Source: Gautieria morchelliformis
Lineage: Eukaryota; Basidiomycota; Agaricomycetes; Gomphales; Gomphaceae
Length of the DNA: 64,000 nt
Assembly (NCBI GenBank): GCA_015179125.1
Contig: WHVA01000479.1
Location: 1-64,000, forward strand
Reading direction: 5' to 3'
A model generated the notes under the pieces. It searched no databases. It had not been told where the DNA came from and was given only the letters and a program-made list of their open reading frames with translations. Within the stretch, counting starts at the first letter, position 1, and each line of letters opens with the position of its first letter. Made by a program: the position numbers and the translations under genes. This document shows, one piece after another, positions 1,395 to 61,688 of the stretch.

Positions 1395-1599
1395 GATGTG
1401 TGCCCCTGCTGCCTGTACATAACCAGTTTTCCTGTCTTGAAGTAGAGAATGAAAAGCTCCCGCTCCCCTCACTTCACACAGAGCCACCGGATAGAGTCAC
1501 ACAAAAACCGAATACGACACCCCGTCCATCCCGCCTCCGCCCTTGGGAGAGATGCCTCCCGAAGCGCTATGTTGTTGCTGCCACCCCTGGCCCCAAGTC

Positions 1600-5235: not shown

Positions 5236-5240
5236 GCATG

Positions 5241-6538: not shown

Positions 6539-6926
6539 TGTCAGGGGACACCCTGTTTTCCATTTCCAGTTCTGACTCCACATCCAGTTCCGATTCCATC
6601 TCCGACTCCGCTTTTGGAAATGATTCCGCTCCTGGCAGAACTTCCACCAGTTCCGTTCGCTTTACCAATTCCACTCCAATTTCCGACTTCCACCCTCAGA
6701 ACATTATCGGAAGTCAAGCGACTCGCGTAGTAGGTGGCATCAAGGGTCAATCAAGGGTCAGGGGAATGCACGGTAGATGGCGGGTGCCAAGTGTTGACCC
6801 TGGCTGCGCAGCATAGTATAATACGGGCTCACTGACATTGGGGGTCCTTAGACTTTTCTCTTCAGATTTCCCCTTGTCAGTTGTGTGGTAGTGTGATCTC
6901 CACAACCAGCCAGGGTTGCCCTTACA
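6539..6926 (+). repeat. 3' LTR of the first gypsy element
   Basis: This 388 bp LTR begins TGTCAGGGGACACC just after a G-rich polypurine-like run (near 6527-6535) and ends CCCTTACA. It contains a TATA-like GTATAATACGGG near 6816. Related copies lie at 8409-8880 (solo) and 7847-9667 (interrupted). Confidence 0.88.
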
Positions 6927-21125: not shown

Positions 21126-23504
21126 GCCTGTATTTTCCTTGCAAAATATCTTCCGCACTTTGTCGTTGTTGTATGTTAGCACTCCTCTTCATTGACTGAC
21201 CCCAACTCTACGCTACTACTTGTCTCGCCACTTCCCGTGTCTGTTTGGACCTGTTGTGTGTATAACCGTACAATAGTGTGATATAACACCATAGTCCCTG
21301 TTATCATCAGACCCCTTACTTCGTCTCGTACCTGTATTGATGCCCGCCGTGCATGGCTAGTGCGGACATATTCCAGGCATTTGTAGAAGTACTTGAAATC
21401 AATCTCACCACAAGTCTCATCATTTCTTCCTTGGCGCTCAGTGCCAAGTATGTTCAGCTTTCTATTTGTGATCGATCTAATCATTCGTAGTACTCCTGAG
21501 TCGGCTCACTCGAGATCCTAGTATCTGGACACGCCCCAGAAACCGATCCATTTCAAATGATGTGCCGTCCGCTTAGGACCTCCCAACGTGGGAGGAAAGA
21601 AGTTTTCGGGAGCCTACGACTGCTGGCGTGGCGCCGGTACAGTTAGGGCGCGCTCGCATGAAGACCGGGTCGCAAATCTGGAGTTGCCGAAGTTAATTCT
21701 GGCAAGGAATTGCCTAATGATGTGATGATGTGAAGTCTTTTACCTGGAGAACTAGCAGCAGCAAATGTTCTTTTAATTCAACTTGGCAGAGGTAACGTAT
21801 CGCAACTGGCCTAGCCACCGGCGGGAGACGGGCTCTGTGAAGAAGCTCTCTTGGGAATGCAAAGACAAGGGCAGAAGCGTGAAACTCTTGCCGGTGTGAC
21901 AGAAGATTTGGGCCATTCCTGTGCCTGCCATGACGATGACGAGATGATGTACACGTGGCCCCGATGATTGTGATTTGACATATCCGGTCTTTCAGGCATT
22001 ACCTCCGGTCCCGATTAAGGTTTTCTGCCTTGTCCCCAAGCTTCGTCCCCTATGTGAATCGGCGAAAGAACAGCTGCCGTTTACCACATGATTACGTTAG
22101 TAAAAATGAAGCATTTGAAGGTTGCCACTCGCTATATTAATGCATGTTGTGTGGACCCGCCTTGCAAAGCTACAGAAAGGTCGTTGCCGCAAAGAGTGAG
22201 AGGCAAAGAAAGGCTCTCGAAGACCATGCCTGTGGGTTAACCCCAACGACGTTGAAACATGCGAATATTTTCAGAACAGCGAGATGTTCCCCGTCAAGTT
22301 TGGCCAGAGACAGGGCTTCCGAATGGGCACGAAGATACTGATATTAGACCTCCACAAATAAAGTTTGCGAGATCAGACCGGTGACGCACTCCTATGGCCA
22401 GGATCCTCTAAGGATAAGGTTAAGACACAGGTAAAAGTGTAGAAGTCCGCATAAACCGATCGGCATGGGCCTGGAAATTTGCTATCTTGGAATATGGAAG
22501 TAACCTTTGCCTAGCCTGAGGATGCCCATAATATGTGTTGTTCAAAATAGCTAATTAGAAGATCAAATTTGAATGAGCTCTCAGCCGCCCGCAGGCAAGA
22601 GATTAAACGTCAACGTATGCCTGTGCCGACGAGAGAAAACCCTGCACATGCAAATGATAGAAATGTGAAATGTGAAGTAGAATACAATTGTCGATCGAAC
22701 GTACATGTTCCTTGACAATATCATCAGGCTGGACTTAATTTGAATGAGCTCTCAGCCGCCCGCAGGCAAGAGATTAAACGTCAACGTATGCCTGTGCCGA
22801 CGAGAGAAAACCCTGCACATGCAAATGATAGAAATGTGAAATGTGAAGTAGAATACAATTGTCGATCGAACGTACATGTTCCTTGACAATATCATCAGGC
22901 TGGACTTATAGGGACGGGAGTTCTCCACTGCTCGTAGCAAACTTGAGCATCCCTTAATTGTGGGTAGACGACCAGAGCCATGCTCGGCCTTGTGGGATAC
23001 GAAGTCGAGTGGGTATTAATTCTCGGTAACCATCAGTCTGGCACCGCCCACCGAGTACGCATACATTGCTCAGAGACTAAAGGAGGACATACCTATGTTC
23101 CAGAAGCTCATGTTAGCCCAACAAGCCTCTTGATATTAACCAGCAATATAACAGTGGTGATATGACTGAGGCAGAAACGTGATGGGTGGGGAGACGAATG
23201 TGGTTTAACTAGGCCCAGGGCCATCGTGAGCCATTTGCTACACTTCTCAGTTCGGAATCCAAGTGCCCGTTACGCGTGATAACTATATAGAAGGTAAGAG
23301 AATGATAGAGCCTCGTGCAACTCGCTAGTTAGATCAATGGATACCAATGCTCGAAATACGGGCAAACCACGAATGCTTACTTTCTTGGCGACGAGTTGCT
23401 CCTACTATGTGGTATGACCAAAAACCACCATTTTCGAAACCATCAATACGAGACTCCGAACAACGTAAAAGTGACCGCTTACATAAGCTCGGTTTTGTTT
23501 CAAC
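21126..23504. other. long intergenic region, no gene recognised
   Basis: About 2.4 kb between GID4 and LEO1. It holds only short frames without recognisable motifs. Its one striking element is an exact 171 bp tandem duplication at 22566-22907. Confidence 0.45.
22566..22907. repeat. perfect 171 bp tandem duplication
   Basis: Two adjacent 171 bp copies (22566-22736 and 22737-22907) appear identical by eye. Such identity in non-coding DNA implies a very recent duplication, or an assembly artefact. Confidence 0.9.
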
Positions 23505-27807: not shown

Positions 27808-27947
27808 TTTATTGGATGGTTACAGTAGCTTAATGGACTGAGGACTTTTTAGTACTACACCCTATTATTATTGCGAAACAGGCGCTACAAGTACTTGGCA
27901 GCGCTTAGTAGTATTCTAATGCGTAGCAGCTGGTCTGAACGCTGTCA

Positions 27948-29596
27948 ATGGGGATTCTCAGTCTCCCTGACGAGGTCCTCGAACTGACGTTAAGGACGCT
28001 CCTGCCTCCCTTTCGCTCACAGTCGTTGGCAGAAACCTTTGTCATCACAGTTGCCGTCGACCTGCTTGTCGCCAGGCTTGTCTCACGTCGCCTGCACCGT
28101 ATTGCAACGCCTCTGGCATGGCGTCGTACCCAGCTCCAGATTGCCCACCCCTCCACAATGAGATACGGCAACTACGGTCTCGAGGACACCGACTCAACCG
28201 CTACCATCGCAGCGACAAAGACCTCTATCCGTTCCCTCGTGCGGTGCCGTTTCTTCCATGAGCACCCAGAACTGGCAGCCCACGTCCGCATCCTCCTCCT
28301 CACACTCGTATGGGATGCAGAGAACCCTGACCTAGCACGGGATGCGTTGCGGGCGGCTACGAGTGCCATGTCCAATCTTCGCACCGTACTCGTCTGGGAC
28401 AGCGATTTGCTCTGTTTCAAAGACATCCGTCACCTCCTGCAGAAGCCCCTTCTTCGCGCCATCTGCCTCATGGACGTAGATGGCTCTGCCTTCCCTGCCC
28501 AGCGAGACTTGAGCGCCAGTCTCAAGATGCTGCACATAGCCAACTCCATGTGCCCCGCGGCACTTGTTGCGGGCACCTCCCTCGAATGCGTGAGCATTGA
28601 GATGGCAGGTCCGTGCTATCGTGCTCCCAAGCCTGTGTTGACGTTGCGCGAGATGCCATGGAAGACACTGAGAGAAGTCGCGCTTGTGGACTGTTGCAAC
28701 TTGAACGAGATGGAATGGTTCTGCTTTTTAGACGGTTTCAAAGTGAGTGTTGTCTTCGTTATAGACACCGGCGAAAGGACGTGTCTGGACGCTTTTTTGC
28801 TGAATTTTGGGCACACGTGTTCTACTCTGCCTTCCCACACAAAGTCGAGGCCCATAGATCGTACTTTGGTCCATGGGTGGGGCGAGTACAACAGTATGTC
28901 TTGGTTCATCAACAAGTGAAGGACTCGACGCCCGACACTGTATTCGCGCTTCTCTGTCTCTTTTCCTTCTCAACGGAAGACGTCATCTGACAATATTTAC
29001 AGCGACATAGAAGCCTGGGTCTCCACGCGGCGCTCACCGAGCTTATGATCGGTGATCTTGCATGCCTTCACTCCCTCCGCGTTAACCAGCTCCTGAATAC
29101 GTTCGCCGGACAACCCCTTACACGGCTAACACTTTATCACGTATTAACGCTTGACCCACCCACATTGGCTCGCATCGTCGAAGCATTCCCTGCCCTGCGC
29201 CATCTCACCCTCCTCACCGAAGGCGAACTCGCACCATGGCCTGGTGCACTTGACGCGTACGCACAGACACTCGCTGGTCTGCCTCTCTTGGAGAGTCTCG
29301 CCTGGAACAACTTCTATTTGCTCCCCACAGTGGATGTGTCGTTCCTCAGCAACGACGCTCTCGGGGGCTTGTATGCCGAAAACGTGCACACGCTCGTGCG
29401 GCATGTGGGACATCTGCAATATATTAAATTCGTGAGTGCTACGGATCGCATCGTAGACACCGTATACGTCAGGCGAACGAACTCAAGGCGTAGAAGCAAG
29501 AGCAGGGACACGAGCCCAGTCGAGGTGAGGAGGGTGACGAAGGCTGCGCTCCATACGTCTTCCTGGAGCACCTCGGATTCTTTTCAGGATATTTAG
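27948..29596 (+). CDS. F-box/LRR-like protein
   Basis: Two exons (27948-28742 and 29003-29596) give 462 aa. The first residues, MGILSLPDEVLELTLRTLLP, fit the start of an F-box, which binds Skp1 in SCF ubiquitin ligases. The remainder has irregular leucine-rich segments (for example LTRLTLYHVLTLDPPTL and FPALRHLTLLTEGEL), as in the large, variable F-box family of basidiomycetes. The 260 bp intron is unusually long for this window and could be longer or shorter if another donor is used, since exon 1 stays open to 28919. The C-terminus is basic and Ser-rich. No substrate can be predicted. Confidence 0.7.
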
Positions 29597-29758
29597 CGCA
29601 CGCCATTTCCTCTCTTATTTTGGGTTTTGGGGTTTTTTTTTTCTTGGGAATTGTGTTAAACGTTAAAGGGTTATAGGGTTAGAGAGTAGTTTATTCGGCA
29701 CAATACAATGCTAATATATCGTTGCCGAAATGAGGTCGCGGGAGCAAATTGACTCTTC

Positions 29759-31233
<1,475 letters not shown>

Positions 31234-31589
31234 GTATAATTATTCTGCTATATGGATGTTACCACGATATCAGCATGTTTGGGGCTTTTGTGGCAGTGAA
31301 ACCTGGGTCACGGTTGTAGACTAACGGGCTGTATTTGATAGTCGCCTACGCTTGCGAACAGAGGCTCTTCCAGGGGTTCACGGTGTACGCAATGAGACCT
31401 CATGATCGTAACATTCTAATACGGTCGTAATCCCATTCTAATACAACAAACATTGCGTACAGCACATGAACAGAGAATGCCAATGCGTGCCTAGCTATAT
31501 GTAGGAATCATGAGTCCATCCCTTGATACAAACCATAAGCAGGAGGAGAATCAGAATCATCATGAACGTTGCGGGTGACCGCCGTGGGT
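31234..31589. other. convergent 3' intergenic region
   Basis: About 356 bp between the ends of the WDR5 gene (plus) and MFS gene (minus). It should hold both 3' UTRs. A duplicated GTAATCCCATTCTAATAC-like block lies near 31409-31443. No gene is seen. Confidence 0.5.
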
Positions 31590-34573
31590 CTACTTATCCA
31601 CGCGGTCATTATCGGAAGCCTTTTTCTTCTTCTCATCCATGTCTTCAGAGCTCATCGCCTGCTCTCCTCCGCCCTCGACAGTCACCTCGTCGGTGTCGTC
31701 GGCATCAGGCGGCGTCGTCGCGCCTTTCTCGAGGTCGGCCTCGGGGGCCGCCCCTGTGGGCTTCTCACTGCGCACCACGTTCCGTTTCAGCGTGTACCTC
31801 AGGATGAAGAGAGCTGAGTGCGGTGAGGCGACGCGTCAATGCTGGGGCCACCGGAGGCGGAGGCGAAGCAGCGAGACGTACACATTAAAAAGCCGACGCC
31901 GATGAGGGGGGTATCTACTATCCAGATCGTAGCAATGCTTTTCGAGTAGGCGTGCAGTACCTGCTGGCGCAGTGCTGGGGGCTACAAAAGGACGTTCGTT
32001 GTGTGAGATAAAACCAGGCTACTTGAAGCCCAGGAAAACATTATAGTAGTACACGAACCGTGATGTTTTTCAATTGCGTTACGCTCTGCGTTAGGGCACC
32101 TGCAGACGTATCAGGACGATAATTAGGGATATTTACGATCCGCTTCCGGACTTCCTGCAAACGCAAACGCAAACCAAGCCGCCAGTTTGGCGCGAGCAAT
32201 GGTTCATTGCTGCAAAGCGACTCACCGACGACCAGATCGCCTGTCCCACGGAGATGCCGACGGTCCCACCCAATGTTCTGTGGCACGTAAATTGCCCACG
32301 TGAGCAAGCCAGCCCGTCTGAAGACATGCCTGGACTCACCGGAGCAAGACAAATGTGGCCGTACTTGTGGCCATGTCCTTTAGGGGCATGGCTGCTTGCA
32401 GACCGATGAGCGGTGTCTGGAACAAACCGCCTGTGCCGAGAGCAGCAATCAATGGGAAGATGGCCTTTAGGGCACTAGGTGTCGTGTGAGACAAGTCCGT
32501 AGAGCGAAGCGGAGAACGCCTACGTTGAGGTGGTATCGTCGAGCATGATCATTAACCCATATCCAAGACACATCATAGACTGAACATCAAGCGTGCAGTG
32601 AGGGAGATCCAAAGAGGGATGCACAGCGCAGTGCTCACCCACGAGAACCAAGTGACATATAGGTAGTCGCCCAGCTTGCTTATTATAATACCGGTGAAAG
32701 CGGATATGAAAGCAGCGCCGAGCGAGAATGGGAGCATCCTGCCATACGCGTGAGTGGGCATCTGTTCGCGGAGCGGTCTCGGGGGCCATACCTGATTCCA
32801 GAGTCGGTGGCCGACGCACCGAGGACTTGGAAGTATAAGGGCAGATAGTATGTGCCTGGTAGAGTGAGTGAGCGGTAACGGAGCGAACATCGCAAACGGA
32901 GAACAGTACCGGCAAAGAAGGCGAAGGCGTGGATGAAGACATTGACGAGGATGATGCCTGTCGTGCGGGTCTGGGGGAATGGGCGTGTGAGCATTGGGCT
33001 CCCTGCTTATCTTAGGGGACCCACCTTGAACAGTCGTGGGGGGACAATAGCTGATCGTTTGGTGTACACCTCGTTCACTCCAGCGACCACTAGGAGCGCC
33101 ACCCCGACCACAAGCAGCGCGATGGTGGCAGGGGCACTCCCTGCACGAAATCATGGTCGCAGATGATTAAACAAATGACAGGACAAGGCAGATCATCCAC
33201 GCACAACTGGTTTCGCTGTTGTTGAACCCGATGAGCACACAAACCACGCCGGCGATGATAAGGAAGAGCCCGACGAAGTCAAACTCATTCACGTGCTCGG
33301 AAAAGCTCTTTCCACGGCGGGGGTTAAGGTTAAGGAAGAAGAACAAGATTGCCGCGGCGAAGCCTCCGGTAGGTCTAGAGAAGAACGGTCAATGGGTGGC
33401 CGGCGCTGACCAAATATAGCGCACAAGTTAATCCAGAAACACCTGTCGGTTATGTTAAAAGGTTAAATAACCCGGAGGAATTACAACTCACCATCGCCAA
33501 GTGACGTGATCAGTGAGAGCCTGAAGGAACCCGATTAAATCAAGTTTAAATATTTACAGTTAACAGTAGGCTCACGCCGCCTAGTAAAGGCCCAACGACC
33601 CTGTTGCGCATAGATAACATGAACTTCGGAACAAAAAATACTGTAGGAAATAACATACGAGGCGATTCCCCATGTAGCGCCGACGAACCCACCGTATTTG
33701 CCTCGCCTGGTGAAGCGGTGAGGCTAATCTGAGGGGCAGTCTGACTTATCTGCTTACTCTTCCAGGGTAACAATATCACCAATGGTGATTTGCACCATTT
33801 GGATGATCCCTACGATATAGTGAGTTTTCACATGTATCATAAACAGTGGATAAGATGCTCACCACCGCCACCGATACCTTGGACGGCTCGGCAGATAATG
33901 AGCCAGGTCATGGTCTGGGCTGCGCCGCATAACGCAGAGCCGATCTATAGAATATGCATAAATTGCCTCATACAGTAACACGCTTCTAATGTGCGCACGA
34001 GAAAGACGATTATGCAACCAAACAGTATGGGCTTCCGTCCGATGATGTCGGAGCCCTTCCCATACAATGGCGATAACGCTGAGGCGGCCAATAAGTATGC
34101 GCTAGTAAATACTGCATGTCAGTGACGGACAGATTATATTTGGTGTCTCTCAAATACCTGCCGACCCACGAGTAGTCATTTCCATCGCCCAGTTGTGCCA
34201 CAATCGTGGGGAGGGCGGTGGACACGCTACGAGCAAGCCATACGTAACCAGATAACGGATTCTAGGTTAAATATGCGTACATGGTCTGATCGAGCGCTGC
34301 CTGAAGGGGGTGTGACTACTCCAAGAAGTCAAATACAGCAATGGAAGCTCGTACCAGAAAGGTCGTCATCATGAGGCCAAAGAATACCAAGGGCATATTG
34401 TTGTGAGGGACGACATGTTGTTCTGCGTCTCCAATGTAAATCAACAGGGGGGTGCTGCTGGGTTGCATACCATTCGCTTTCCAGGCAGCACGCTCCTTCT
34501 TGGGGTGAGCCGCTGGCGCCTGGTGCTCGGAGACGTCGGGGGCTGGCTGGGGCTGGTCCTTGACTGGTGGCAT
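31590..34573 (-). CDS. MFS multidrug transporter, DHA2 family (14 TM)
   Basis: This is a predicted plasma-membrane proton antiporter that exports drugs or other small molecules. From the ATG at 34573, a Pro/Ala-rich cytosolic N-terminus leads to NNMPLVFFGLMMTTFL, AALDQTIVSTALPTIV and GNDYSWVG. CRAVQGIGGGG and VVGPLLGGV (motif C type, spliced across an intron near 33650) are DHA2 signatures. Later blocks include FKTRTTGIILVNVFIHAFAF, TYYLPLYFQVLGASATDSGI, LGGTVGISVGQAIWSS and IPNYRPDTSAGALTQSV. Many very short exons (more than ten) are separated by roughly 50 bp introns, and the tested junctions keep frame. A charged, disordered tail ends in a lysine-rich run. I see no break, so it is probably functional. 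Confidence 0.85.
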
Positions 34574-42024: not shown

Positions 42025-42605
42025 GCTTCGTATAAGTAATATACATGTCGCCAGGGAGAGTTTCCAAAGCCAGTTCAAAAATTATTGAAGAAGCATGATA
42101 ATTACTCCCAATATGGGAGGGGGAAACCAACTCATATGCTACAAAACCTGTCCGCATCATCTTGGACGACGACAGAGGACTTGGACAGGTTCATAATCTG
42201 ATTGGAGAGAGCTTCTCAACAAATCTACCAGTATACGGGCACCCTCATGTATGTCCTCACCGTACATGTGAAGGGGGTTGAAAGACGCACACTTAGACTT
42301 GGCCTCTATTAGAGTCTTCATACTGTACGAATAGACGGGAGGCGCGCTGGTAGCAAGCGCGCGACATGCCGAGACGAACGAAGCTGCCCGGACCAGGAAG
42401 ATGGCGGGACCCGGGAGCGTGGCAACAGTCGATCACGTTTATATCATGCACAGACGACAAATCCCTGCAAGAATAACTTCATGGTCAATAATAGAAATTC
42501 AGACCATTGTCTGGCCTCGCCTTCGATGTTGTGTAGAGGCAAATAGAGCGGCTGGCTGTTGTCAGCCGCCCTACCTGCCACTGCACAGTATAAGAAGGGG
42601 CCGTC
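42025..42605. promoter_or_regulatory. upstream region of the tandem-exon gene, with hairpin and TATA-like site
   Basis: About 580 bp between the WD40 relic and the tandem-exon gene. Near its end a perfect inverted repeat, GCGGCTG...CAGCCGC (42548-42569), is followed by TATAAGAAG (42590-42598). The TATA-like box is 46 bp before the second in-frame ATG (42636), a more usual distance than for the first ATG (42606). These may be core promoter parts. Confidence 0.4.
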
Positions 42606-45600
42606 ATGCAAAGGCCTCAGTCGCTACACTTGAACATGAACCTCCATCACGTATACGTCTTTTTGCAGAGCTGTATCGGCCTGTATATAATCGCGGTGAC
42701 CGTCCCTTCGGTCTCGCTTGATATCTTCCAGTACGCCTCCCCCGCTGCCCCGCCCCACTGGAATAACCTCAATGGAGATCTTCAAGTGGTTGCCCCCGCT
42801 TCCCCGCCCCACTCGAATAACATCAATAGCGATAAACCGACGCCGAAACTTCAAGTGGTTGCCCCCGCTTCCCCGCCTCACTCGAATAACCTCAATAACG
42901 ATAAACCGACGCCGATACTTCAAGTGGTTGTGGTGCAGGCTGAACCATCGCAATCAGCCACGAATCACTCCGTATCCATTGCTTCCGATGTTCCCTCGGA
43001 CGTCCTCTGTAGGCCTAGTGGTTCGGTCACGATCGGTCATAGCGTGTTCTGGCTTGCGTTGGGTATTGCATTGGGTATTGCGTTGGGTATTGCGTTGGGT
43101 AGCCTCCTGGGAACGGCTGGCACTTGCGGACACTCCCACAAGGCTCGCCGCGGAGATGAGAAAGCCGATAGTGCATGGTCTCCTCAAGATTTCTCTTCGT
43201 CAACGGCAGTGATAGATGACCGTGTCAGCGATCTCGAGGCGGCAGCCCAGTGTTCCGGATCGTGCACCGAGTCACCATTCGAGTTCACCGAGGCTCACAT
43301 ACCCGAGTTGACCGATTTTTTTATATCTGATCCGTTAGACATTCAAGGGGAATCAACGCTCGCATGGCCAGAGTCTCCAAGGAAGAGCACGAAGAACTCG
43401 CAGCCGTGAGTACTTTGCCGTCTTCTGGTTTCCAAAGTTTTGCGTGTACTGATTACTATGCAGGGACGATTCCTTCATATTCGATGCTGGAGAGATCCAG
43501 CGTGAATCCACGGCACAACAGTTTGCACGGCGCTCCGCCTCCAGGAAAACGTTTCCTCCGGAATTTATCAGAGGGGAAGACATAACAAAGAAGCATGTTT
43601 CAACCAGTCCCCCCCAGTTATCACCCCCGCCGTGGTTGGTTTAGTTCTATGTGTTTTAATGAAAGCGTGCTTTACTAACCGCCTTGTGTAGCGATCAGCA
43701 AGTGTCGAGAGATATGATTAATACCTTGGGTTCAAAATCTGTAGGGAGGCGCACGGATCAGTCGCAGCTGTGAGTATTTTGCGGTCTTCTAGTTTCCAAA
43801 TTTTCGCGTGTACTGATGAATTACTATGCAGAGACCATTCCTTCATATTCGATGCTGGAGAGATCCAGCGTGAATCCACGATACAACAGTTTGCACGGCG
43901 CTCCGCCTCCAGGAAAACGTTTCCTCTGGAATTTATCAGAGGGGAAGACATAACAAAGAAGCATGTTTCAACCAGTCCCCCCCAGTTATCACCCCCGCCG
44001 TGGTTCGTTTAGTTCTATGTGTTTTAATGAAAGCGTGCTTTACTAACCGCCTTGTGTAGCGATCAGCAAGTGTCGAGAGATATGATTAATACCTTGGGTT
44101 CAAAATCTGTAGGGAGGCGCACGGATCAGTCGCAGCTGTGAGTATTTTGCGGTCTTCTAGTTTCCAAATTTTCGCGTGTACTGATGAATTACTATGCAGG
44201 GACGATTCCTTCATAATCGATCCTGGAGAGATTCAGCGCGAATCGACGATACGAAAGTTCGCACGGGGCGCCGCCCCCAGGAAAACGTTTCCTCTGGAAT
44301 TTATCAGAGGGGAAGACATACAAACGAAGCATGTTTCAACCAGTCCCCCCCAGTTGTCACCCCCGCCGTGGTTGGTTTAGTTCTATGTGTTTTAATGAAA
44401 GCGTGCTTTACTAACCGGCCTTGTGTAGCGATCAGCAAGTGTGGAGAGATATGATTAATACCTCGGGTTCAAAATCTGTGGGGAGGCGCACGGATCAGTC
44501 GCAGCTGTGAGTATTTTGCGGTCTTCTGGTTTCCAAAGTTTTGCGTGTACTGATGAATTACTATGCAGGGACGATTCCTTCATATTCGATGCTGGAGAGA
44601 TCCAACGCGAATCGACGATACGAAAGTTCGCACGGGGCGCCGCCCCCAGGAAAACGTTTCCTCTGGAATTTATCAGAGGGGAAGACATACAAACGAAGCA
44701 TGTTTCAACCAGTCCCCCCCAGTTATCACCCCCGCCGTGGTTGGTTTAGTTCTATGTGTTTTAATGAAAGCGTGCTTTACTAACCGCCTTGTGTAGCGAT
44801 CAGCAAGTGTGGAGAGATATGATTAATACCTCGGGTTCAAAATCTGTAGGGAGGCGCACGGGTCAGTCGCAGCTGTGAGTATTTTGCGGTCTTCTGGTTT
44901 CCAAAGTTTCGCGTGTACTGATGAATCACTACGCAGGGACGATTCCTTCATATTCGATGCTGGAGAGATCCAGCGCGAATCGACGATACGAAAGTTCGCA
45001 CGGGGCGCCGCCCCCAGGAAAACGTTTCCTCTGGAATTTATCAGAGGGGAAGACATACAAACGAAGCATGTTTCAACCAGTCCCCCCCAGTTATCACCCC
45101 CGCCGTGGTTGGTTTAGTTCTATGCGTTTTAATGAAAGCGTGCTTTGCTAACCGCCTTGTGTAGCGATCAGCAAGTGTGGAGAGATATGATTAATACCTC
45201 GGGTTCAAAATCTGTAGGGAGGCGCACGGATGAGTCGCAGCCGTGAGTATTTTGCTTGTCTCCAATGTTTTGCGTGAGCTGATGGATTATTACACAGGGA
45301 AACTGTCGACACTCTTCCGCGGAGAACCATGTTCGATCCGCTAGCGATTGAGCGGCAGTCGAACCTCGCACGGCGCGTTCTAAGGTTCGTCAGGACGAGC
45401 ACACATTCATCGCAGCCGTGAGTATTTTGCTTGTCTCCAATGTTTTGCGTGAGCTGATGAATTAGTACACAGGGAAACTGTCGACACTCTTCCGGGGAGA
45501 TCCATATATGATCCGCTAGCGATTGAGCGGCAGTCGAACCTCGTACGGCGCGTTCTAAGGTTGGTCAGGACGAGCACAAACTCATCGCAGCCGTGAGTGT

Positions 45601-45927
45601 TTTGCTGGTTTCCAATGTTTTGCGTGAACTGATTACTTACTACGCAGGGACCATTTTGATCCCCCGCGCTGCGCACGACACAAAGATTATTCGATGGAGT
45701 TTGTCGCACAGAAGGACGTGCCCCCAATCCCCGTCGAACAATCTTTAACCGATGTATTTGGTCCCAAGATATTCTGTGCGGACATTCTGCCTCAGCCGCA
45801 GAACAAAGGGGACGCAGCAGTGTTTGATCCCAGGTTTATTGGGTATTGCCCACCCTTCAAACGTGCGGACATACAGGCACAGTCCTCCGTGCGCAATCTA
45901 GTTGACCTTGCTCGATGTTCTCGTTAG
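42606..45927 (+). CDS. unrecognised membrane protein with five tandem in-frame exon-pair repeats
   Basis: I do not recognise this protein. Fourteen exons join without a stop: 42606-43405, then five pairs (43464-43634/43692-43769; 43832-44002/44060-44137; 44200-44370/44429-44506; 44569-44739/44797-44874; 44937-45107/45165-45242), then 45298-45417, 45473-45592 and 45648-45927. The sum is 2565 nt, 854 aa. Exon 1 has a signal-peptide-like start (or from M at 42636), a Pro-rich 23-residue repeat (LQVVAPASPPHSNN...) and one transmembrane helix made of LGIA repeats (about residues 145-172). Each repeat unit adds 83 residues, with DDSFIFDAGEIQRESTIRKF. The next two exons are duplicates of each other (DPLAIERQSNL). 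Every internal intron is phase 2, so units can be added or skipped in frame. The last exon is unique and ends at TAG. Confidence 0.7.
42780..42945 (+). repeat. 69 bp minisatellite inside exon 1
   Basis: Starts of CTTCAAGTGGTTG occur at 42780, 42849 and 42918, an exact 69 bp period. Two full units and the start of a third are visible, with a diverged partial copy before them from about 42727. In frame it encodes LQVVAPASPPHSNNxNxDKPTP, a Pro/Asn-rich spacer. Confidence 0.9.
43056..43106 (+). repeat. 12 bp tandem repeat encoding LGIA in a transmembrane helix
   Basis: TTGGGTATTGCG is repeated about four times. It encodes the Leu-Gly-Ile-Ala repeats that form the only predicted transmembrane helix of the tandem-exon protein. 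Changes in copy number would alter helix length by four residues each. Confidence 0.85.
43406..45242 (+). repeat. tandem array, five 368 bp exon-intron units
   Basis: Matching points recur at 43464, 43832, 44200, 44569 and 44937, a 368-369 bp period. Each unit holds a 171 nt exon, an intron with a CTAAC branch motif, a 78 nt exon and a second intron. Copies are nearly identical by eye, introns included; the first unit, and in part the second (AQQFARRSASR versus RKFARGAAPR), differ most. Exon lengths are 249 nt per unit, exactly 83 codons. Confidence 0.92.
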
Positions 45928-46636: not shown

Positions 46637-47093
46637 ACATAGGCCTTGGGGGTCAGTAATCTAGCGTTAGCTACGCATTCTTGTATAATCACTGGTTTGA
46701 GTATTCGGCACAGGTGAAAGTCTGAATACCCCAGACCGAACCAGAATCCGACGGAACGTCGGTACTTGGGCCAGTGGATCGCATCAAGAACTCCCCACGA
46801 GGACAGTCATCTAATTATGTCTCAGTACTAATTAGCCTACGCCTGCGACATATAGAACAAGGTTTTAATAAGCTACGTTACGGTAAGTAATTCTCCAATC
46901 CTTTTGGATCCTGACCTTATAAAGTACACTAGTTCTTCCTCTCTCACCACCACCACCACGCCCTGTGTGGGCCAGTAGCACTGGCAGCGTGGGGGAGGGC
47001 GCGGGTGCGTGCACGGGCAGTGGCAGCTGTGCGGGGACAGGCGCGTGCATCTCTCCTGCGTCTGCATCTGCATATGCGTGTGCGGGTTGGGGC

Positions 47094-47700
47094 CTGCGAA
47101 CTTGCGGATGGTCGATTGCCGCTGTATCTCTAAATCCTTAGAGATTCAACGGGAATCAACCATCCGCAAATTCACATGGCGCTCCGCCCCCGGAAAATCG
47201 TTAACACTGAGGGGACACAGACTCCAGGTTTGTTGGGTATGGCCGCCGCCCTGAATGTCTGCATGGTTTAGGTATGCGAGGCAAGGACAAACTCACGGCT
47301 GCAACTGATTCGTGCTCCTCCTTACATACAGTAAGGAAGAGCACAAATGTGTCGCAGCCGTGAGTATTTTCAAAATACTCACGGCTTGCTGTCTTCTTGT
47401 TTGCAATATTTTGCATGAACTGACGAATTACTACGCAGGGACCATGCCTTTATATTTGATCCCCCGCGCTACTAGTAGTGCCCGACACAAAAATTATTCT
47501 ATGGAATTTCTACAACAGAACTGACGTGCCAACGACTCCCCTCGAACGATCCTTAATCGACGTGTTCGGCCCGAGCATTATATTATGTGTGCGGATACTC
47601 TCCCGAAGAAGAAAGGGCGCAGCAAATTTTGACTCCAGGTTTGTCTGGTATTGCCTGCCCTTCAACCGTGCAGACATCCAGGCACGGTCTTGAGTCGTCC
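47094..47700 (+). pseudogene. decayed second copy of the 3' part of the tandem-exon gene, with inverted repeats
   Basis: It contains an IQRESTIRKF-type coding block (47144-47200), the shared intron start (GTGAGTATTTT) and the last exon (47440-47695, matching 45650-45927). The last exon has an early stop after LQQN (about 47522). Three inverted repeats sit inside it: 47098-47173, 47292-47364 and 47356-47386. No signal peptide, membrane helix or full repeat unit is present. It is a pseudogene, perhaps shaped by foldback rearrangement. Confidence 0.8.
47292..47386. repeat. overlapping perfect and near-perfect palindromes over a splice donor
   Basis: 47292-47364 pairs CTCACGGCTGC...CCTTAC with GTAAGGAAGAGC...GCCGTGAG. 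47356-47386 is a 31 bp palindrome with one central base (AGCCGTGAGTATTTT and its complement). A third inverted repeat at 47098-47173 has arms of about 36 bp. A transcript would fold into strong hairpins. Confidence 0.88.
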
Positions 47701-47960
47701 GGAATCTTGCCAACCCCGCTCGTCACTCCTAGTTACACTCTCCTACTTTTTTTAACTCTTAAGTATTCTTTCTGTATTGCTATTTGAAATTATTATATTA
47801 GGTTAATCTCTAAGAAACTAAGAAACCACAGTAATCTTCATAACTACTTATCCGTCCCATGCGTATTGTAAGAATTTGCTGCTCTTCGCAGTGGGGGCTC
47901 ACAATCTCGCCGCGCACGGGAAATTTGCAGTTTGCTCCTATGGGAGATCAGAGGGCGAGC

Positions 47961-48501: not shown

Positions 48502-49614
48502 ATGACCACCGAAATCCCTACCTTCAAGCTCGTTCTCGGTACGTGTGTTCAGGCGTCCGCGTCGCGCGTGTGTAACTTGGCTGACTGATAAACCAATGGT
48601 CTCGCTGTGTCACTCGTGAAAACCTCGTCTTTCTATTCATCGACATGTCTCCTTCCTCTCATTTATCGCGTTTTGGATACAGTTGGTGATGGTGGAACGG
48701 GTAAAACAACATTCGTCAAGGTTTGTCATTTTTTCCCCTACCATGTGTCACTCCCTGCGATTGTGTCTGCATCTAACCCACATCACTCTAATAGCGTCAC
48801 CTGACCGGAGAGTTTGAAAAAAAATACATCGGTACGTCGCGATCCGCCGCAGACCAGCGCGTTTTTTACAATCAGGAGACTCATGCCACACGCGTTTGTT
48901 GTTGACTAGCCACCCTCGGCGTGGAAGTCCATCCGCTCTCCTTCACCACCAACTATGGCACCATATGTTTCAATGTATGGGACACGGCAGGACAGGAGAA
49001 GTTTGGTGGCCTTCGTGATGGATATTATATCCAAGGCCAATCTGGCATCATTATGTTTGATGTCACTTCGAGGATTACGTACAAGAACGTACCCAACTGG
49101 CACCGTGACCTTGAACGTGTATGCGAGAACATCCCCATCGTGTTGTGCGGTAACAAGGTCGACGTCAAGGTTCGTTGCCACTTTGTGGTTTGATGAGTGT
49201 GCAAGAAGCCCTGACGACATTTAATATTCAGGAGCGTAAAGTGAAGACTGGGGCTGTGACTTTCCACCGGAAAAAAAATCTCCAATATTTTGAGATCTCC
49301 GCCAAGTCAAACTACAATTTCGAAAAACCCTTCCTCTGGCTCGCGAGGAAACTAGTCGGGTGCGTAGCAATTGCACAACGCCTTAATAACATTCTGATTA
49401 TTCTTCTTTTATTTCTCTAGCAATACAACATTGGAATTCGTCGCCGCGCCCGCACTTGCTCCTCCCGAAGTCCAGGTTGATGCTAGCCTGATGGAGCAAT
49501 ACAACAAGGAGTTGCAAGATGTGCGTTCACCCCCGTTTGACCGAACCACAATACTAAGTTGTTTTCTTACAGGCTGCTCATATGCCTCTGCCGGAGGAAG
49601 ACGAAGACCTCTAA
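48502..49614 (+). CDS. GSP1: Ran GTPase (Gsp1/Spi1)
   Basis: Ran drives nuclear import and export and spindle assembly by cycling between GTP and GDP. Seven exons read [25 protein letters not shown] (P-loop), [22 protein letters not shown] (switch I), [20 protein letters not shown] (switch II, catalytic Gln present), [24 protein letters not shown] (NKVD) and [22 protein letters not shown]. The acidic C-terminus [10 protein letters not shown] is the Ran hallmark, and there is no CaaX box. Length of about 213 aa equals the family norm. The first intron, right after LVL, is about 140 bp, longer than the others. All exons are open. Confidence 0.96.
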
Positions 49615-50515
49615 ATATTTCCCTTAACCTTTCCATCTCCGCCACCTTACGCCACCACACGTTACATACTTACATGAACATCTGTCGCACCTTCTTTACT
49701 TCAGCTCACCCATTTCCGCTGTCCCGGTTCCTGTAACGCCCTCTCGCTTCGATTCGCCTCGTTCATACTGCATAAATGAGACCTTTTCGATTTGCTTTGG
49801 ATAGGCGATGCTGGGTTTCGGTAATTGAATCCGTACGCTGGATTGTAATGCACCATAAGTGTGGCTGCAGCCTATAAACTGAATCCCATCCGAGTGATAA
49901 TACGATGTTTCAGAGGACATGTTGAGATAAGTATGGAATGATGACAGCTTCGCTTTCATGATTGTCAGAACCATGGTAATCCGGTCTTCTGCGATGCACG
50001 TGACCAGTGATTGGAAACACTAAAATGAATAATGTCACTTCATAATTGGAAACTCAAGGAAGCCTTCGGCAAAGAGTACTGTACTGATGAGACTAGAAGT
50101 TTATACACACGAAACACCGAAAATGGACACCTTCACGTCGGTAGACTCGTATAACATTCTGCCGGCACTGGCTCAGTTTCAATGCCAGGTAGATGAACTC
50201 TTACTTAACGTACCCACTGTTGTTGTTATCGTTAACACACTGAGCCTATTAATTGAACTTGTTCTGTTACCTACAGGATGGCGGCCAAGCTAGACTGCCA
50301 TTCATCCACCGGCCTGTCAACCGGCAACGTCTAACGTGCACCGCCTCCTGGTCCTATGTCCTAATTGTCATTGGATCGTTGTTTTGCATTCACACCGTGC
50401 TGTACATGCCAGACACAAAACCATCTCCGCACATCTGGTACAAGCTTTCTGGCAACCTCCCAACACACAGTTCCACTCTGTAGTTGGCACTAGGCCGTTA
50501 TGGAAAAAAATATGT
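49615..50515. other. intergenic, no gene recognised
   Basis: About 900 bp between Ran and the Rac-like gene. Only short frames are present, none like a known family. Confidence 0.4.
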
Positions 50516-51551
50516 ATCAAATGTACGTGTTCACGTTTTCCTGCGTCTGTGGTGACCGGAGTGCCCTTCGACGTGCTTCATAGGTGTCGTAGTTGGTGAT
50601 AGCGCGTAGTTGGTGATAGCGTCGGCAAGGTGTGTAGCCTGGCTTGGAGGTGCAGTCGGCAGTGGCACTAATCAAAGTTATCGTCATCTGCAGACGTGTC
50701 TTCTTTTCTCACATACCACAAATGCATTTCCCGTAAGCTCCATTTCTCTGTCGACCTCCTGACTTGACTGTCCCAACGCTAGGAATACGTCCCTCCATGT
50801 ATGCAGTATCTCCGTTGGTATCTCCGTTGGTGTATTGCCTTGTTGATCTTCCGCTGCTCACCAGCATTCGACGGGTATGCGGCTGACGTCCTGGTAGACG
50901 GCAAGACCTTCGGTCTCGGTCTGTGGGATACGAGTCCAAAGGAAGAATACGACCGACTCCGCCCGCTATGTTACCCCCAAACAGATGTCTTCATTATCTG
51001 TTTCTCACTCGTCAGCCCGCCCAGTTATGAGAGCGTCAAGACGAAAGTATACTCCCAAGAATATTCTTTAAAAGATGCGCAGCCAACCTTTGCATTACTG
51101 ACTTCGCTTTTCCACTGTAGTGGCTCCCCGAAGTATCTCACCATACACCGTCGGCTTCCATCGTCCTTGTTGGCACTAAACTTGACCTACGTCAGGATCC
51201 GTCAACGATTGAGAACTTACGAGCGCGGTGCGTCACATCCCACGCGCCTGATAATCTCTCTGGCTCAGTTGGGCCATTCTGAACACAGAAACATGGCACC
51301 CATTACGCACGCACAGGGTGTGAGTATGCAGAAGGATATCGGTGCTGCCAAGTACCTTGAGTGCTCGGCATTGACGCAGGAAGGGGTGAGGAACGTGTTT
51401 GACGACGCAGTCCGGGTTGCAGGTGAGTGAGATACGAATGGGACGATACGTCTTGCTGCATGATGTCTAACATCCTTTTTCAGCATCCAGGCCGCCTCCC
51501 AAGTTGACTTCAAAGTCGCCTCGAAAGACATGCGTCTGCATCGTCGCGTAG
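50516..51551 (+). pseudogene. Rac/Rho-type small GTPase, degenerate or atypical
   Basis: Exons from 50690 onward read open to a TAG at 51549-51551: [96 protein letters not shown] and a CaaX-like end CIVA. This is clearly Rac-like. The 5' end is damaged: IKCVVVGDS near 50516/50590 is followed by a 17 bp direct duplication (GTAGTTGGTGATAGCG) that stops the frame, and no ATG fits. A second acceptor could skip it, giving GDSVGKT, one residue short of the normal P-loop. Switch I has PPSFD where PTVFD is usual, and switch II has DTSPKEEYD where DTAGQEEYD is usual, losing the catalytic Gln. GTP binding and hydrolysis are doubtful. Confidence 0.7.
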
Positions 51552-56483: not shown

Positions 56484-59400
56484 ATGCCGTTCGAGGACAG
56501 GCGTAGGGCTCTCATGGAGCAATCCCTCCCTCGTCAGCGTACGATGAGCGCCACGTCTGCACCGCCTCCACCACCACCACCACCACCAGCTACCTCGATG
56601 GTGCACATTGATGAAACCGCCTCAGCCACCTCGACTACCCTGCCGACTAATGTGAGTCCACCACCCGGCAATTGGGACGTAGACAGTCTCGTTAAGAGCG
56701 GCCCCCGCTTCAACCCTGTCCCCCGTGTATCAGCTTCTCTGCCTCGAGAGGTCTTACTCTCCGAGGTCCTTAAGTCCGAAGAGACAGGCACCCCGCTCAT
56801 CATCGAAGGCTGGCACAAACGCCCAGAGTGGAACCATACTCTGTTCAGCATGCAAGGCTTTGTGACAGACGGAAGTCAGCGTGAGTTTCGATACCTCAGT
56901 ACTCATTTGCTTGTCGATCGCCCTTCGCCATGTAACTTTCCCAAAATCAACCTACTGATCGTCCGGCTGCCATCACAGTCGTCGATGTTCGTGATGTTCG
57001 CAGTTCGAAAGATACCAAAATGCCTCTGAGTGAGCTGGCGCTCCATTATGAGACACAGTTAAAGGGCGATCAGCGGAATAGTGAGCCGTGGTATCTCCTT
57101 TGAACGAATGCAAGGCTGATTTTTACAGCATCAGAGGGCCCCGTTCACTACGGGAAGGATATCCGTTGCCCCGAGAAATGGGAAGAATGGCTCAGATCCC
57201 ATTTGCCAACCCATTTCCACCCCTTTGGAGATAACGACATGATCTCCTGCCTACCTCCTAAGGTTGGTTCTATCCGACTATCCGCAGTTTATACTAATAA
57301 TGAATATAGCACCGAGCTGAAACTCTAATGTGCTATATGGGTATTGAAGGCACATTCACGTCAGCGCACAAGGATCTGTGCGGCTCCTTCGGACACAACT
57401 TGATGTGTCATGCAACAGCTGGAGGATCGGCATTCTGGTTCATGTCGAGGACAGGTCCGCTCCAGAATGACCAGCCTGCGGCCTATTTCCACAATGAACT
57501 TGGTGTGGAACTGGATCATGAGACCCATGAGGCCACTGTCGGACAGTTCCGCGCGGCACCATTTGATGTGTATGTGGCAGAACAAACCTTAGGTGACCTG
57601 GTCCTCGTGCCGCCACGCAGTTGTCATCAAGTTGTCAACAAAGGCGGCATCACCATCAAAATGAGCTGGAGCAGAATGGGCCTAAAGAGCCTTGAGTACT
57701 CGCTACACGCTGAACTAGCGTTATACCACAGGTACGCGCATTATTGGTAACGTCGTGCTTATGTTAACGGATCTGTAAGGGTGTGTCGTATGGAGATATA
57801 TCGGGTGAAGCTGACTGTCTTCGCCGCCGTCCAAGAGTATACTCGGCGCTTTATAGACATGGCCCGGTCCCCCAGCTCTTCCGCCTCTACACCCCCACTT
57901 CATATCCCCCTGATTCTCGTCTTCCGGTCTCGTCGTGTCGTGACCCATCTCCGCCCGTCCAGTCGATGGCCGTTGCACCTTCGGCAGAGGCCGTCCGCGG
58001 TGTGGGGGCCACCCTCGAGAGTCTTCTCTCGCTTCTGAAAGAGATTCTCATTGAAGAATGGTGCCCTGACCATCGGAAACTCACGGATGATAGCCCCGCT
58101 ACCGAGTGCCAGGAATTACACTCATGTGATTTCTGTGGCGCCGACATTTTTCAGTCGTTCTTCGCCTGCTCTGAATGCTCTGGTGGCGACGAAGCCTCTG
58201 AGTTCATATGTTGTCCGAGCTGTTACGTTGAGGGTCGTTCCTGTAACTGTGGCTCGGAGCGCATGAAGCCCCGCCAGAGCAGGCCATTCAGTGACCTCCT
58301 TCATGAGCTGAATAAGGGCGTGGACGCATTAAACAAGTATCAAATCCCTAGCAAGCAAATTCCAAAGGTCAATGACAGTACAATCGCATCATCCAAGCAC
58401 CTGCAGACGTTTCATGCCGCATGTATGCTGCGGGATAAATTCTTGCGGGCCACTAGTGTTTGTCTTTTTGTAGTCTCTTCTTTGGACGGTTGTACTAAAT
58501 ATTGCACCGACAGAACCGTAGGGGAAGTACCCGATGTGCGACACGCTCTGAGCACCCATCGCACGACACAGCGTCGTCAGCCCACGTTCTGCAATGTCAG
58601 GCGTGCAACTCTGGCATGTGCTTCTCGCACATTCTTAAATCGTGCGATGTGCACGTCGCGGAGGCGCTGCTCATATCTGTACCTGACCCCAGTAATGCTA
58701 CGTGGCACAAGAGACATGGCTCAAAACCAGGGAAGCGTAGGATCCCCTTAAGTGAACACCATGGCCGTGAGCGGGGCGACATGCAAACTCTTGCGAAGCG
58801 CATGGCGTGGGCAGCTGCGAAGTTCAGTAGGTGCCGTCCTGTGGACCAACGTGCCAAGATGGGGTTTTACGATCAGCTTGATTATCCGAAGCCAGCCGTG
58901 AACTTAGAGGTCGTCGGTTTGCCGCAGGTGAGAACATTATTAATTTGTATGCCTTAGCTTGATTTTTCTCATATATTCAGACTTCGTCCCATCCCGAGAC
59001 TTCGCCTAGCCTAGCGACAGCGGCGATTCTCTATGGAAGTCCTCTCACAGTAAGCGGCTTGTACAATAATGATTCTAATACAATTAACATCTACTCAGCA
59101 ATTATCTGATCTTGCATCCGAGAAACCTGTGGAGGACTCTAGTGATGATACTGATGACGGCTCGGACGAGACGTTCTCACCCCAACCTCGTAGGCCAACG
59201 AAGCGCGCTGCAGAACTTGCCGTTAAGTCAAGAGCCCCCGTCGAGCCCATGCAATGCACGTCCAGCACATCCACCGTCGAGCCGGTGGTTGAAGTAGCTC
59301 TCGTTCAACCTCGTAGGCCAATGTTATCAACGAAGCGCGCTGCAGAACCTGCCGTTAAGTCAAGAGCCCCCGTCGAGCCCATGCAACGCACGTCCAGCAT

Positions 59401-61688
59401 ATCCACCATCGAGCCAGTGGTTGAAGTAGCTCTGGTTCCCGGCATCCGCCCTACTTCACTAATAGCCCCGTATGTGCTCCTAACGCCTCTTGGCAGAGGC
59501 AAGAAACGAATTTTGGACCCCGACCCGAATGGCCCGCCCATGCCCAGAAAGAAAGCGAAAACTAACCCATCTGGTCCCCCAGGCCATACATCGCCCGAGG
59601 TCTTGGTGAAAACTACCTCATCTGGACGTCCAGCACAGAGACCTCCCTCATCACCAGAGGTCCCCGACCCGAATAGCTCGCCCGTGCCCAGAAAGAAAGC
59701 GAAAACTACCTTATCTGGTCCCCCAGAGCTAAGACGCCACACATTGCCCGAGGCCTTGGTGAAAACTACCTCATCTGGACGTCCACCACAGAGACCTCCC
59801 TCGTCACCAGACTCTGTGGCTGATGCCCTTAATGCATGTTCAGCTGCAGCGTTGAGCAACGGTCCAACGCCAGCTGCCTTTCCGGCCCGTGGCAGGACAG
59901 TTGTGCCCGTTGGCTCGTCACAAAAATCTAAAGCTGTGACGGGCCATGATCCGAGGCGAGCGCCCCCTGTTCCACCTCGACAACTTGTGTCATCCCGATA
60001 CGGAAAACCCCATCACTCTGCGAAGCGCAAGATTGTCTCATCAAGCCGCGAGTCTAGTGTTTCCAGGCCCGTCCCACCTCCTGCGCCACCAACTCAGGCT
60101 GCAGGGCCTTCGATTGTTCTAGATCAGACAAGTATTGTGGCAACGCTATCAAGCGTTCTGAAGGCCGAACAGGCGAAAACTACAGCGCTAGACAAATCAC
60201 TGGAAAACGCTCGAGCTGAGATTACGGCGCTCAACATAACAGTCTCCCGTCTGAAGGAGGAGAACAGTGGCAGATACGTAGGCGAGTTGCGTAGGGAGAT
60301 GGCACAGCTCAACAACGAGCTTGTAGAAGCAAAGGCGAAGAACGGGACATTTCTACACAGAATATCTTCTCTGACCGATGACCATGCCAAGATTACCGAC
60401 TCGCTTGAAGGCTATAAGCATCAGATCGTTGGTCTGGAGGAACAATTACGACACAGCCAGGCCGCTGTCGCAGAAAAAGAGCGATCTTTGGCTGGATTCG
60501 CCAACATCGCTGGTCTCATCGGGTCAAGCATTCAAATGGCGCAGAACCCTGCGTCATCTTCGCATAGACAGTTGCAGCGCGTGGTACCTTCGTGTGGTGT
60601 ACCATCGGACGTGCCTACAGGTCCGGCATCACAAAGGCCATTCCAACCGCAGTCATGGGTAACTTTATATTTGTCTTAGAATGTATGGCACATACTTACG
60701 CTTTCCCTAGCAGAGACCCTATGTACCTAGAGGACGAGGATTTGGTCCACGTCGTGGCATAGGACGATCAGGGCCAGGATTTAGCGAACGGGGACGTGAA
60801 TATGGCTCGTCTCAACAGTTTCCTCATAAGCACGGTCACGTTTCCCACCAACCCTCTGAGCTTAACCATCGCGATGACGGGATGTCAGCAAAGAATCCCA
60901 TGTATGACGATAAGAAAGAACATGACGAATCTGACGCATTTGGACGTGGACGGTATCGCGAACGTGAACACCTTGATTATGCGACTGGGGGCGGATCAGG
61001 CGACCCGCGACGTCAAGGATATCAGCATCCCCCACCACGGCGAGATCGACGTGTCACTGAGAGCAAAAGGCGCGACAGTTCCCGGCATGAACGATATGTC
61101 ACTGACAGTGAACGAAGCGAAGACCACCGGCGTGACCGGTTTGAGGGTGACGAGGTTTCTGGAGATGAACGGCGTGAGCGGCGATTCTCCTGTAAGCCCG
61201 TGCATTCTGTGCAATGTTCTTGGATTCACATTTTCTGCATCACTAGCTGTACCTGCCCGACCGTACGACAATGTCGGTGACGGAGGATGGGCGTCGGTTC
61301 GTCAGGATGCTCTGGATTATCGTGAAGATGATAGGGCGTCATGGTATGGTCCAGATACTAGCCCTCGCCGGTTCGAATCCGAAGGTATGCCGACTCAACT
61401 CTGCATTTATAGATCAGAGCTAATGTTTGTTTAGTCTCATCCTCGCCACATCAGCGCGGCATGAGAGACCATCGAGACCTTTCTAGACGTAGCAGCCCGG
61501 ACTTAGGGTCCCCGTCAGAGTACCGCTATAGGGATGAACCAATGGATAACGAACTCATAGAGTACCAGGATGAGGAGATCGCCGACGAACCCGGCAGGGA
61601 AGAGCGTCAAGAAAGAGAGCCGTCTCTTGAAGAGCGGCTTGATCGAAGTACTACACCACCGTCGCAGGTCAACCCATGGGCAGAATGA
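56484..61688 (+). CDS. large JmjC-domain protein with C-terminal Cys-rich zinc region and coiled coil
   Basis: It is a predicted Fe(II)/2-oxoglutarate oxygenase, probably acting on chromatin. A polyproline N-terminus leads to the JmjC fold: VTDGS...VVDVRDVRSS, GTFTSAHKDLCGSFGHNLM (iron ligands in HxD, here HKD) and DLVLVPPRSCHQVVNKGG (distal His). Next comes a Cys-rich region, CDFCGADIFQSFFACSECSGG...CCPSCY...CNC, plus CQACNSGMCFSH. Then follow a long Pro/Ser/Lys-rich part with internal duplications, a coiled coil (about 60120-60500) and an Arg/Asp/Glu-rich tail ending VNPWAE. About 15 exons make roughly 1,450 aa. Histone demethylation is likely from the fold but the target residue cannot be read. 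The exon path near 57780-58500 and 61190-61260 is approximate. Confidence 0.8.
59187..59810 (+). repeat. two in-frame internal duplications in the JmjC gene
   Basis: First, QPRRP...TKRAAE.AVKSRAPVEPMQ...EPVVEVALV occurs twice (about 59187-59304 and 59307-59433). Second, PDPN..P.PRKKAKT..SGPP...VKTTSSGRP.QRPPSSP occurs twice (about 59519-59660 and 59666-59810). Both lie in the disordered, lysine-rich middle and keep frame. Confidence 0.85.

What the first reader, a model, noticed from the sequence alone, without database searches (positions are those of the whole stretch)
42606..45927. A 14-exon gene built on five in-frame tandem copies of a 368 bp exon-pair unit
Five near-identical units (matching points 43464, 43832, 44200, 44569, 44937) each hold a 171 nt and a 78 nt exon with phase-2 introns. 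Every unit therefore adds exactly 83 residues in frame. All 14 exons sum to 2565 nt, 855 codons, with no stop. Exon 1 gives a signal-peptide-like start and one transmembrane helix. The repeats are joined to two further duplicated 120 nt exons and a unique last exon. I know of no family with this layout. Phase-2 symmetry means unequal crossing-over or exon skipping would make proteins of different lengths, as in repeat-bearing surface proteins used for self or mate recognition or host contact. That last point is inference.
Basis: partly seen in the sequence, partly recalled or inferred. Interest (0 to 1): 0.85.

Follow-up and report, generated by a model that had tools for sequence, protein, structure and literature searches.

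The report
Fungal gene family amplifying its exons
A probable fungal membrane-protein gene is built from repeated copies of one exon pair, and its relatives in the same genome carry different numbers or different kinds of repeated exon, so this looks like a fast-changing family that lengthens its proteins by copying whole exons without breaking the reading frame.

Summary
The window gene can be spliced as described: 14 exons, 2565 nt, 13 of 13 introns in phase 2, five units of 171+78 nt. The same genome holds a dispersed copy on C671 with seven units and one in-frame TAG, and a diverged paralog on C282 with 20 exons, 1522 codons, 19 of 19 introns phase 2, that amplifies a different exon of 153/156 nt. 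Some decayed relatives also carry exon-intron repeats.

The C-terminal domain is constrained (dN/dS 0.09, C536 against C282), the units weakly (0.65-0.84). Two C671 units are identical over 368 bp, so that array changed recently. The start codon is probably 42636, not 42606.

Best reading: a single-pass membrane protein with a repeat-built tail whose length drifts by unequal recombination while symmetric phase-2 exons keep it in frame. Splicing, expression and biochemical role are inferred. No Pfam family above cut-off, no convincing PDB match. Closest printed precedent found: Cryptococcus CNN00420. Verdict: a real new variant of a known kind. RNA and other species could not be tested.

The parts
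42589..42594 (+). TATA-like box (TATAAG), the same in C671 and C282, TATATG in C643
   Evidence: alignment of four paralog 5' ends
42606..43405 (+). exon 1: signal-peptide-like start, Pro-rich stretch with 69-nt repeats (42780-42930), transmembrane stretch, first module-like end; probable true start codon at 42636
43464..43769 (+). unit 1 exons: 171 nt (43464-43634) + 78 nt (43692-43769)
43832..44137 (+). unit 2 exons: 171 nt (43832-44002) + 78 nt (44060-44137)
44200..44506 (+). unit 3 exons: 171 nt (44200-44370) + 78 nt (44429-44506); intron between is 58 nt, 57 in the other units
44569..44874 (+). unit 4 exons: 171 nt (44569-44739) + 78 nt (44797-44874)
44937..45242 (+). unit 5 exons: 171 nt (44937-45107) + 78 nt (45165-45242)
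45298..45417 (+). 120-nt exon, first copy (diverged FDPLAI module)
45473..45592 (+). 120-nt exon, second copy
45648..45927 (+). last exon: conserved C-terminal domain of about 85 aa and stop
47130..47740 (+). degenerate second family member just downstream (module remnant and last-exon remnant with stops)

Best explanation
The locus is an intact-looking member of a small, dispersed, fast-changing gene family. It encodes a single-pass membrane protein: signal-peptide-like start, short Pro-rich outer part, one transmembrane stretch, and a long tail built of copies of a module (FIFDAGEIQREST... in most window units, FIFDPLEIQREST... in C282) that ends in a conserved C-terminal domain. The modules are carried by exons flanked by phase-2 introns, so any whole-unit gain or loss keeps the frame. 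Unequal crossing-over or replication slippage between near-identical units changes unit number; the middle units appear to be replaced fastest. SHOWN from sequence: a consistent gene model, its frame and symmetry, copy-number difference between paralogs, amplification of different exons in different members, weak constraint on units and strong constraint on the C-terminal domain. INFERRED: splicing as modelled, expression, membrane topology, the recombination mechanism, and that the tail acts as a length-variable, multivalent spacer or docking tail that presents the conserved C-terminal domain.
For:: 14 exons, 13 of 13 introns phase 2, open frame. C671 copy with seven units. C282, 20 exons, 1522 codons, 19 of 19 introns phase 2, internal exons of 132, 153, 156 and 393 nt (all multiples of 3), introns of 48 or 49 nt; last exon C536 against C282 dN/dS 0.087 (39 synonymous of 65 differences; binomial p 1e-9). 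C671 units 3 and 4 identical over 368 bp; first units (W1, W2, C1) and last units (W5, C7) group across loci (support 0.996 and 0.978), as expected for an array exchanging in its middle; single-copy coding exons differ at 13 of 1320 nt between C536 and C671, against 60 of 1013 aligned sites in the downstream flank; decayed or incomplete relatives C633, C643 and C260 also hold tandem exon-intron repeats.
Against: No RNA, so splicing is a model. Units show pN/pS 0.65-0.84, not far from neutral. The C671 copy has one in-frame TAG in unit 7. Six of about nine gene-like loci are decayed or incomplete. The upstream flank (4 of 356 aligned sites differ) is as conserved as the exons, so low exon divergence between C536 and C671 alone does not prove coding constraint. 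The grouping of last units W5 and C7 may owe much to their last intron, which differs in kind from that of the other units. AlphaFold gave no confident fold for the C-terminal domain (mean pLDDT 55.2, 5 sequences) or the module (59.7, 11 sequences, one weak helix).
Confidence: 0.72

Rival explanations
1. The units are functionally neutral filler: a minisatellite with an intron that happened to sit in a tolerant stretch of tail. Unit number drifts without effect, and only the C-terminal domain and the membrane part matter.
For: Unit pN/pS 0.65-0.84; different exons amplified in different members; a stop in one unit of C671.
Against: No frame-breaking change in 10 of 10 window unit exons, nor in 18 of 18 C282 internal exons. 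The core (FIxD, then EIQREST) is kept in modules of C536, C671, C282 and one of the two on C2; that C2 module is followed by a stop and the other C2 module departs from the core.
Confidence: 0.3
2. An arms-race or selfish family (recognition receptor, or driver-like gene), where unit number and type set specificity, as WD repeats do in Podospora hnwd genes or 7-aa repeats in fission-yeast wtf genes.
For: Dispersed copies, decayed members, repeat expansion, and a 5' block that looks exchanged between paralogs: synonymous differences 4 of about 35 sites in the N-terminal part against 39 of about 56 in the last exon (Fisher on rounded counts p 3e-8); 42520-42635 differs at 9 of 109 aligned sites from C282 against 65 of 231 in the last exon. 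The papers describe such patterns for hnwd (abstract) and wtf (passages).
Against: No Pfam match to any such protein; no phenotype, expression or population data; these patterns also fit ordinary young gene families. Conserved 5' DNA could be promoter constraint rather than exchange.
Confidence: 0.12
3. The unit arrays are an assembly artefact, or the gene is a pseudogene.
For: Near-identical tandem units are hard to assemble; C671 has an in-frame stop.
Against: Units within an array differ at up to 21 (window) or 22 (C671) of 249 exon sites; two loci differ in number in the same register; the frame is open across 14 and 20 exons in two members; purifying selection on the last exon. Exact unit number remains uncertain.
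Confidence: 0.06

Closest known systems
Cryptococcus gene CNN00420 (Sharpton et al. 2008, PMC2395259; the section on the gained intron read in full, other passages seen)
   Same: Basidiomycete gene with tandem repeats of about 107 nt that contain exon ends plus a full intron; introns identical or nearly so; repeat number differs between strains; introns supported by ESTs.
   Different: One single-copy gene with six introns. Here a multi-locus family amplifies different whole symmetric exons, up to 18 internal exons, with a conserved C-terminal domain. Sequence homology to CNN00420 was not tested.
[quoted passage not shown]
   Same: Tandem arrays of fixed-length exons with a near-exclusive phase-2 bias; array length varies between paralogs, put down to ectopic recombination.
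   Different: Exons there are exactly 90 bp and encode leucine-rich repeats, with thousands of genes; here 171/78/120/153/156 nt, no LRR match, about nine loci.
Aphid bicycle genes (PMC9168663, passages)
   Same: Many small internal exons, nearly all in phase 2; fast-evolving family hard to find by sequence similarity.
   Different: Insect putative effector genes with many micro-exons; here near-identical tandem exon copies, a transmembrane stretch and a different organism.
Podospora hnwd genes (PMC2873952, abstract)
   Same: Fungal genes with tandem repeats that gain and lose units and evolve in concert across family members.
   Different: STAND proteins with WD repeats; here no such domain (Pfam).
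Schizosaccharomyces wtf genes (PMC9562144, passages)
   Same: Fungal multi-copy family with in-gene repeat change and non-allelic gene conversion.
   Different: Five or six exons with 7-aa repeats inside an exon; here whole-exon repeats. Sequence relation was not tested directly.

Membership tests
[quoted passage not shown]
   13 of 13 in the window gene, 19 of 19 in C282
[quoted passage not shown]
   171, 78, 120, 153 and 156 nt; no LRR match in Pfam
Intron-containing repeat expansion as in CNN00420 | Repeat unit contains a whole intron plus exon sequence | tested here: met
   368-bp unit = 171 + 57 + 78 + 62
Intron-containing repeat expansion as in CNN00420 | Unit number varies between closely related copies | tested here: met
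   5 in C536, 7 in C671; these are paralogs, strains not tested
Intron-containing repeat expansion as in CNN00420 | Splicing shown by transcripts | not testable with these tools
   no RNA data
hnwd / STAND-WD genes | STAND NTPase with WD repeats | tested here: not met
   No Pfam family above its cut-off; sub-threshold UBA2_C (24.8 of 25 bits), LbH_EIF2B and NTS_2 for the whole protein, none for four single pieces
wtf drivers | Sequence homology to wtf | not tested
   no wtf sequence was compared; Pfam gave no match above cut-off
wtf drivers | Dual poison and antidote transcripts | not testable with these tools
   no RNA data
Aphid bicycle genes | Small internal exons nearly all in phase 2 | tested here: met
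   12 of 12 internal exons flanked by phase-2 introns, 78-171 nt
Aphid bicycle genes | Sequence homology to bicycle proteins | not tested
   no bicycle sequence was compared

The most novel reading that the evidence does not exclude
A fungal recognition or selfish gene family in which specificity is written in the number and kind of spliced exon modules. Each locus amplifies its own exon, exchanges its promoter and signal-peptide block with paralogs, and keeps one conserved C-terminal domain as the working end. In effect an exon-level counterpart of hnwd repeats.
Probability: 0.12. Interest if true: 0.85.

Novelty: new variant of a known kind. Interest (0 to 1): 0.5.

Why it matters
Arrays of same-phase exons are documented in ciliates, and intron-containing repeats that change number in one Cryptococcus gene. 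A multi-locus family in one genome where different members amplified different exons gives a natural series (5, 7 and 18 units or exons, and decayed cases) for testing how exon duplication, intron gain by duplication and frame symmetry shape a protein, and whether repeat number matters to fungal recognition.

Tried and rejected
Searches in print: (seven of ten allowed). They gave the analogues cited and, in the listings seen, no fungal family of this layout. The library lacks most subscription journals, so absence there is weak.

Pfam near-hit UBA2_C (24.8 bits, cut-off 25) was rejected: no single stretch passed and the single unit alone has no hit, so it looks like summed repeat signal. PDB by sequence, with unit 5 to the C-terminus: one chance-level match, E 1.4. 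Structure prediction of the C-terminal domain and of the module: low confidence; no fold search was made on such models. Rfam: nothing in the window at gathering score.

C671 as the other allele of the same locus: rejected as likely, because shared DNA stops near 42240 and fades near 46950 and two flanking stretches tested (48510-50000 and 27900-33200) have only one full copy in the assembly, other matches being short. A collapsed or rearranged haplotype is not fully excluded.

Other fungal genomes could not be searched: the held collections are prokaryotic, phage, viral or plasmid, the metagenome scans were capped at nought, and this genome offers only itself.

Full report
WHAT IS THERE. The window gene can be spliced into 14 exons of 800, five times 171+78, twice 120, and 280 nt. 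They sum to 2565 nt, with 13 of 13 introns in phase 2 and no internal stop. TRF finds the 368-bp array (5.1 copies) and the 175-bp array (2.4 copies) independently. In the window gene the exon copies do not change length, while the unit introns do (57/58 and 62/55 nt), which is what coding exons and free introns should show. The start is probably ATG 42636: it aligns in 4 of 4 paralog 5' ends compared, lies 47 nt after the start of a TATA-like box (TATAAG in three, TATATG in C643), and the frame of the upstream ATG is closed early in C643 and C282. C282 has a further ATG eight codons upstream that is open and that I used for its 1522-codon model; from the shared Met it would be 1514.

THE FAMILY. 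Searches of the window's own genome (122 Mb, 1113 contigs; only best candidates are scored, so counts are lower bounds) find the following. C671 (minus strand, 288-292 kb): the same gene with seven units, last exon identical in protein, exon 1 with 6 of 800 differences, and one in-frame TAG in unit 7. C282 (344.4-349.9 kb): 20 exons, 1522 codons, 19 of 19 introns phase 2; its 18 internal exons are fifteen of 153 or 156 nt, one of 132 and two of 393, with introns of 48 or 49 nt; all 21 matches to this amplified exon lie on C282. C633, C643, C260 and C1026, a remnant just downstream in the window (47130-47740) and one on C671 (286.7 kb) are decayed or incomplete (the broken frame of C633 was read by eye, that of C1026 from the frames of its pieces). 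C633, C643 and C260 nevertheless show two or so tandem exon-intron repeats of about 165-184 bp. Two lone modules lie on C2. So of about nine gene-like loci, two have fully open frames (C536, C282) and one is open but for a single stop (C671).

C671 IS A DISPERSED COPY. Similarity to C671 begins near 42240 and fades near 46950. The neighbouring gene at 48.5 kb (a Ran-like GTPase by its motifs, recalled) and 27.9-33.2 kb have only one full copy in the assembly.

SELECTION. Nei-Gojobori counts. Last exon, C536 against C282: dS 1.9, dN 0.17, ratio 0.087. Membrane part: ratio 0.35. N-terminal part: 4 synonymous and 16 nonsynonymous differences, ratio 1.39 on few synonymous changes. Units: pN/pS 0.82 within C536 (10 pairs), 0.84 within C671 (21 pairs), 0.75 between them (35 pairs), and 0.65 in C282 (105 pairs from 15 of 18 internal exons; the 132-nt and two 393-nt exons were left out). 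Pairs share history, so these ratios are not independent tests. Single-copy exons C536 against C671: 7 synonymous of 13 differences, p 0.023. Thus the C-terminal domain is the conserved part and the array is loosely held. Against this, the upstream flank differs at only 4 of 356 aligned sites, and unit introns differ by 1.7-3.7% between units, no more than the unit exons, so low exon divergence is not by itself proof of constraint.

ARRAY TURNOVER. Units 3 and 4 of C671 are identical over 368 bp and unit 5 differs from them by one base. First units W1, W2 and C1 group (0.996), and last units W5 and C7 group (0.978), the latter perhaps because their last intron is of another kind. Edge units that persist and middle units that are replaced are expected of unequal exchange. 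With single-copy exons of the two loci already about 1% apart, the C671 units that are identical were most likely copied after the loci parted.

MODULE AND EXCHANGE. The 171-nt exons, the C282 modules, a C2 module and the 120-nt exons align over a core with two invariant columns (D and I) and four nearly invariant ones in 11 rows, so I take the tail exons of the window gene as descendants of one ancestral exon; for the 120-nt exons, only 18% identical, this is inference. The 5' block is more alike between C536 and C282 (42520-42635: 9 of 109 sites differ; 42636-42766: 17 of 131) than the last exon (65 of 231), with synonymous differences uneven at p 3e-8 on rounded counts. Exchange between paralogs is my preferred reading; promoter constraint is the alternative. 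The acceptor-like stretch TTTCAAYCAGTC of the C282 introns also occurs, unspliced in the model, in five of five 171-nt exons of the window gene and inside two C282 exons. This suggests, without proving it, that duplication made an intron border out of exon sequence, in line with intron gain by repeat expansion in Cryptococcus.

FUNCTION. Hydropathy gives a signal-like and a transmembrane stretch in both intact members. The tail of the window protein is rich in S, R, P and D. No known family or fold was found. I commit to a membrane-anchored, length-variable docking or spacer tail presenting the C-terminal domain; that step is inference. That the organism is a basidiomycete is also inference, from short introns and general gene content; no call names it.

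VERDICT. A true and unusual gene structure, with its predicted copy-number change found inside the same genome. It is a new variant of a known kind, given CNN00420, the Tetrahymena exon arrays and hnwd repeats.

Noticed in passing
window 59069-60679: A 536-aa ORF holds two further tandem repeats with periods of 132 and 153 bp (both multiples of three), so another repeat-bearing reading frame may lie in the same window.
   Followed up: no
window 22566-22908: A 171-bp tandem duplication, 2.0 copies, 100% identical. Stops occur in all six frames of the stretch, so it looks noncoding or very recent.
   Followed up: partly
window 1391-6816: ORFs of an LTR-retroelement type; Integrase_H2C2 passes its Pfam cut-off and rve falls just short at 5267-6058. 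Pieces related to this region also lie near the C671 and C1026 family members.
   Followed up: partly
window 47130-47740: Decayed second member of the family directly downstream, and a similar remnant downstream of the C671 copy.
   Followed up: partly
L029 2589-2972 (C282 exon 1): The Pro-rich part of C282 exon 1 holds five 78-bp repeats; the window gene has 69-bp repeats at about the matching place, so a second length-variable stretch exists.
   Followed up: partly
window 48510-51430: Two Ras-superfamily genes close together: a Ran-like one (motifs recalled) and one matching Pfam Ras.
   Followed up: no
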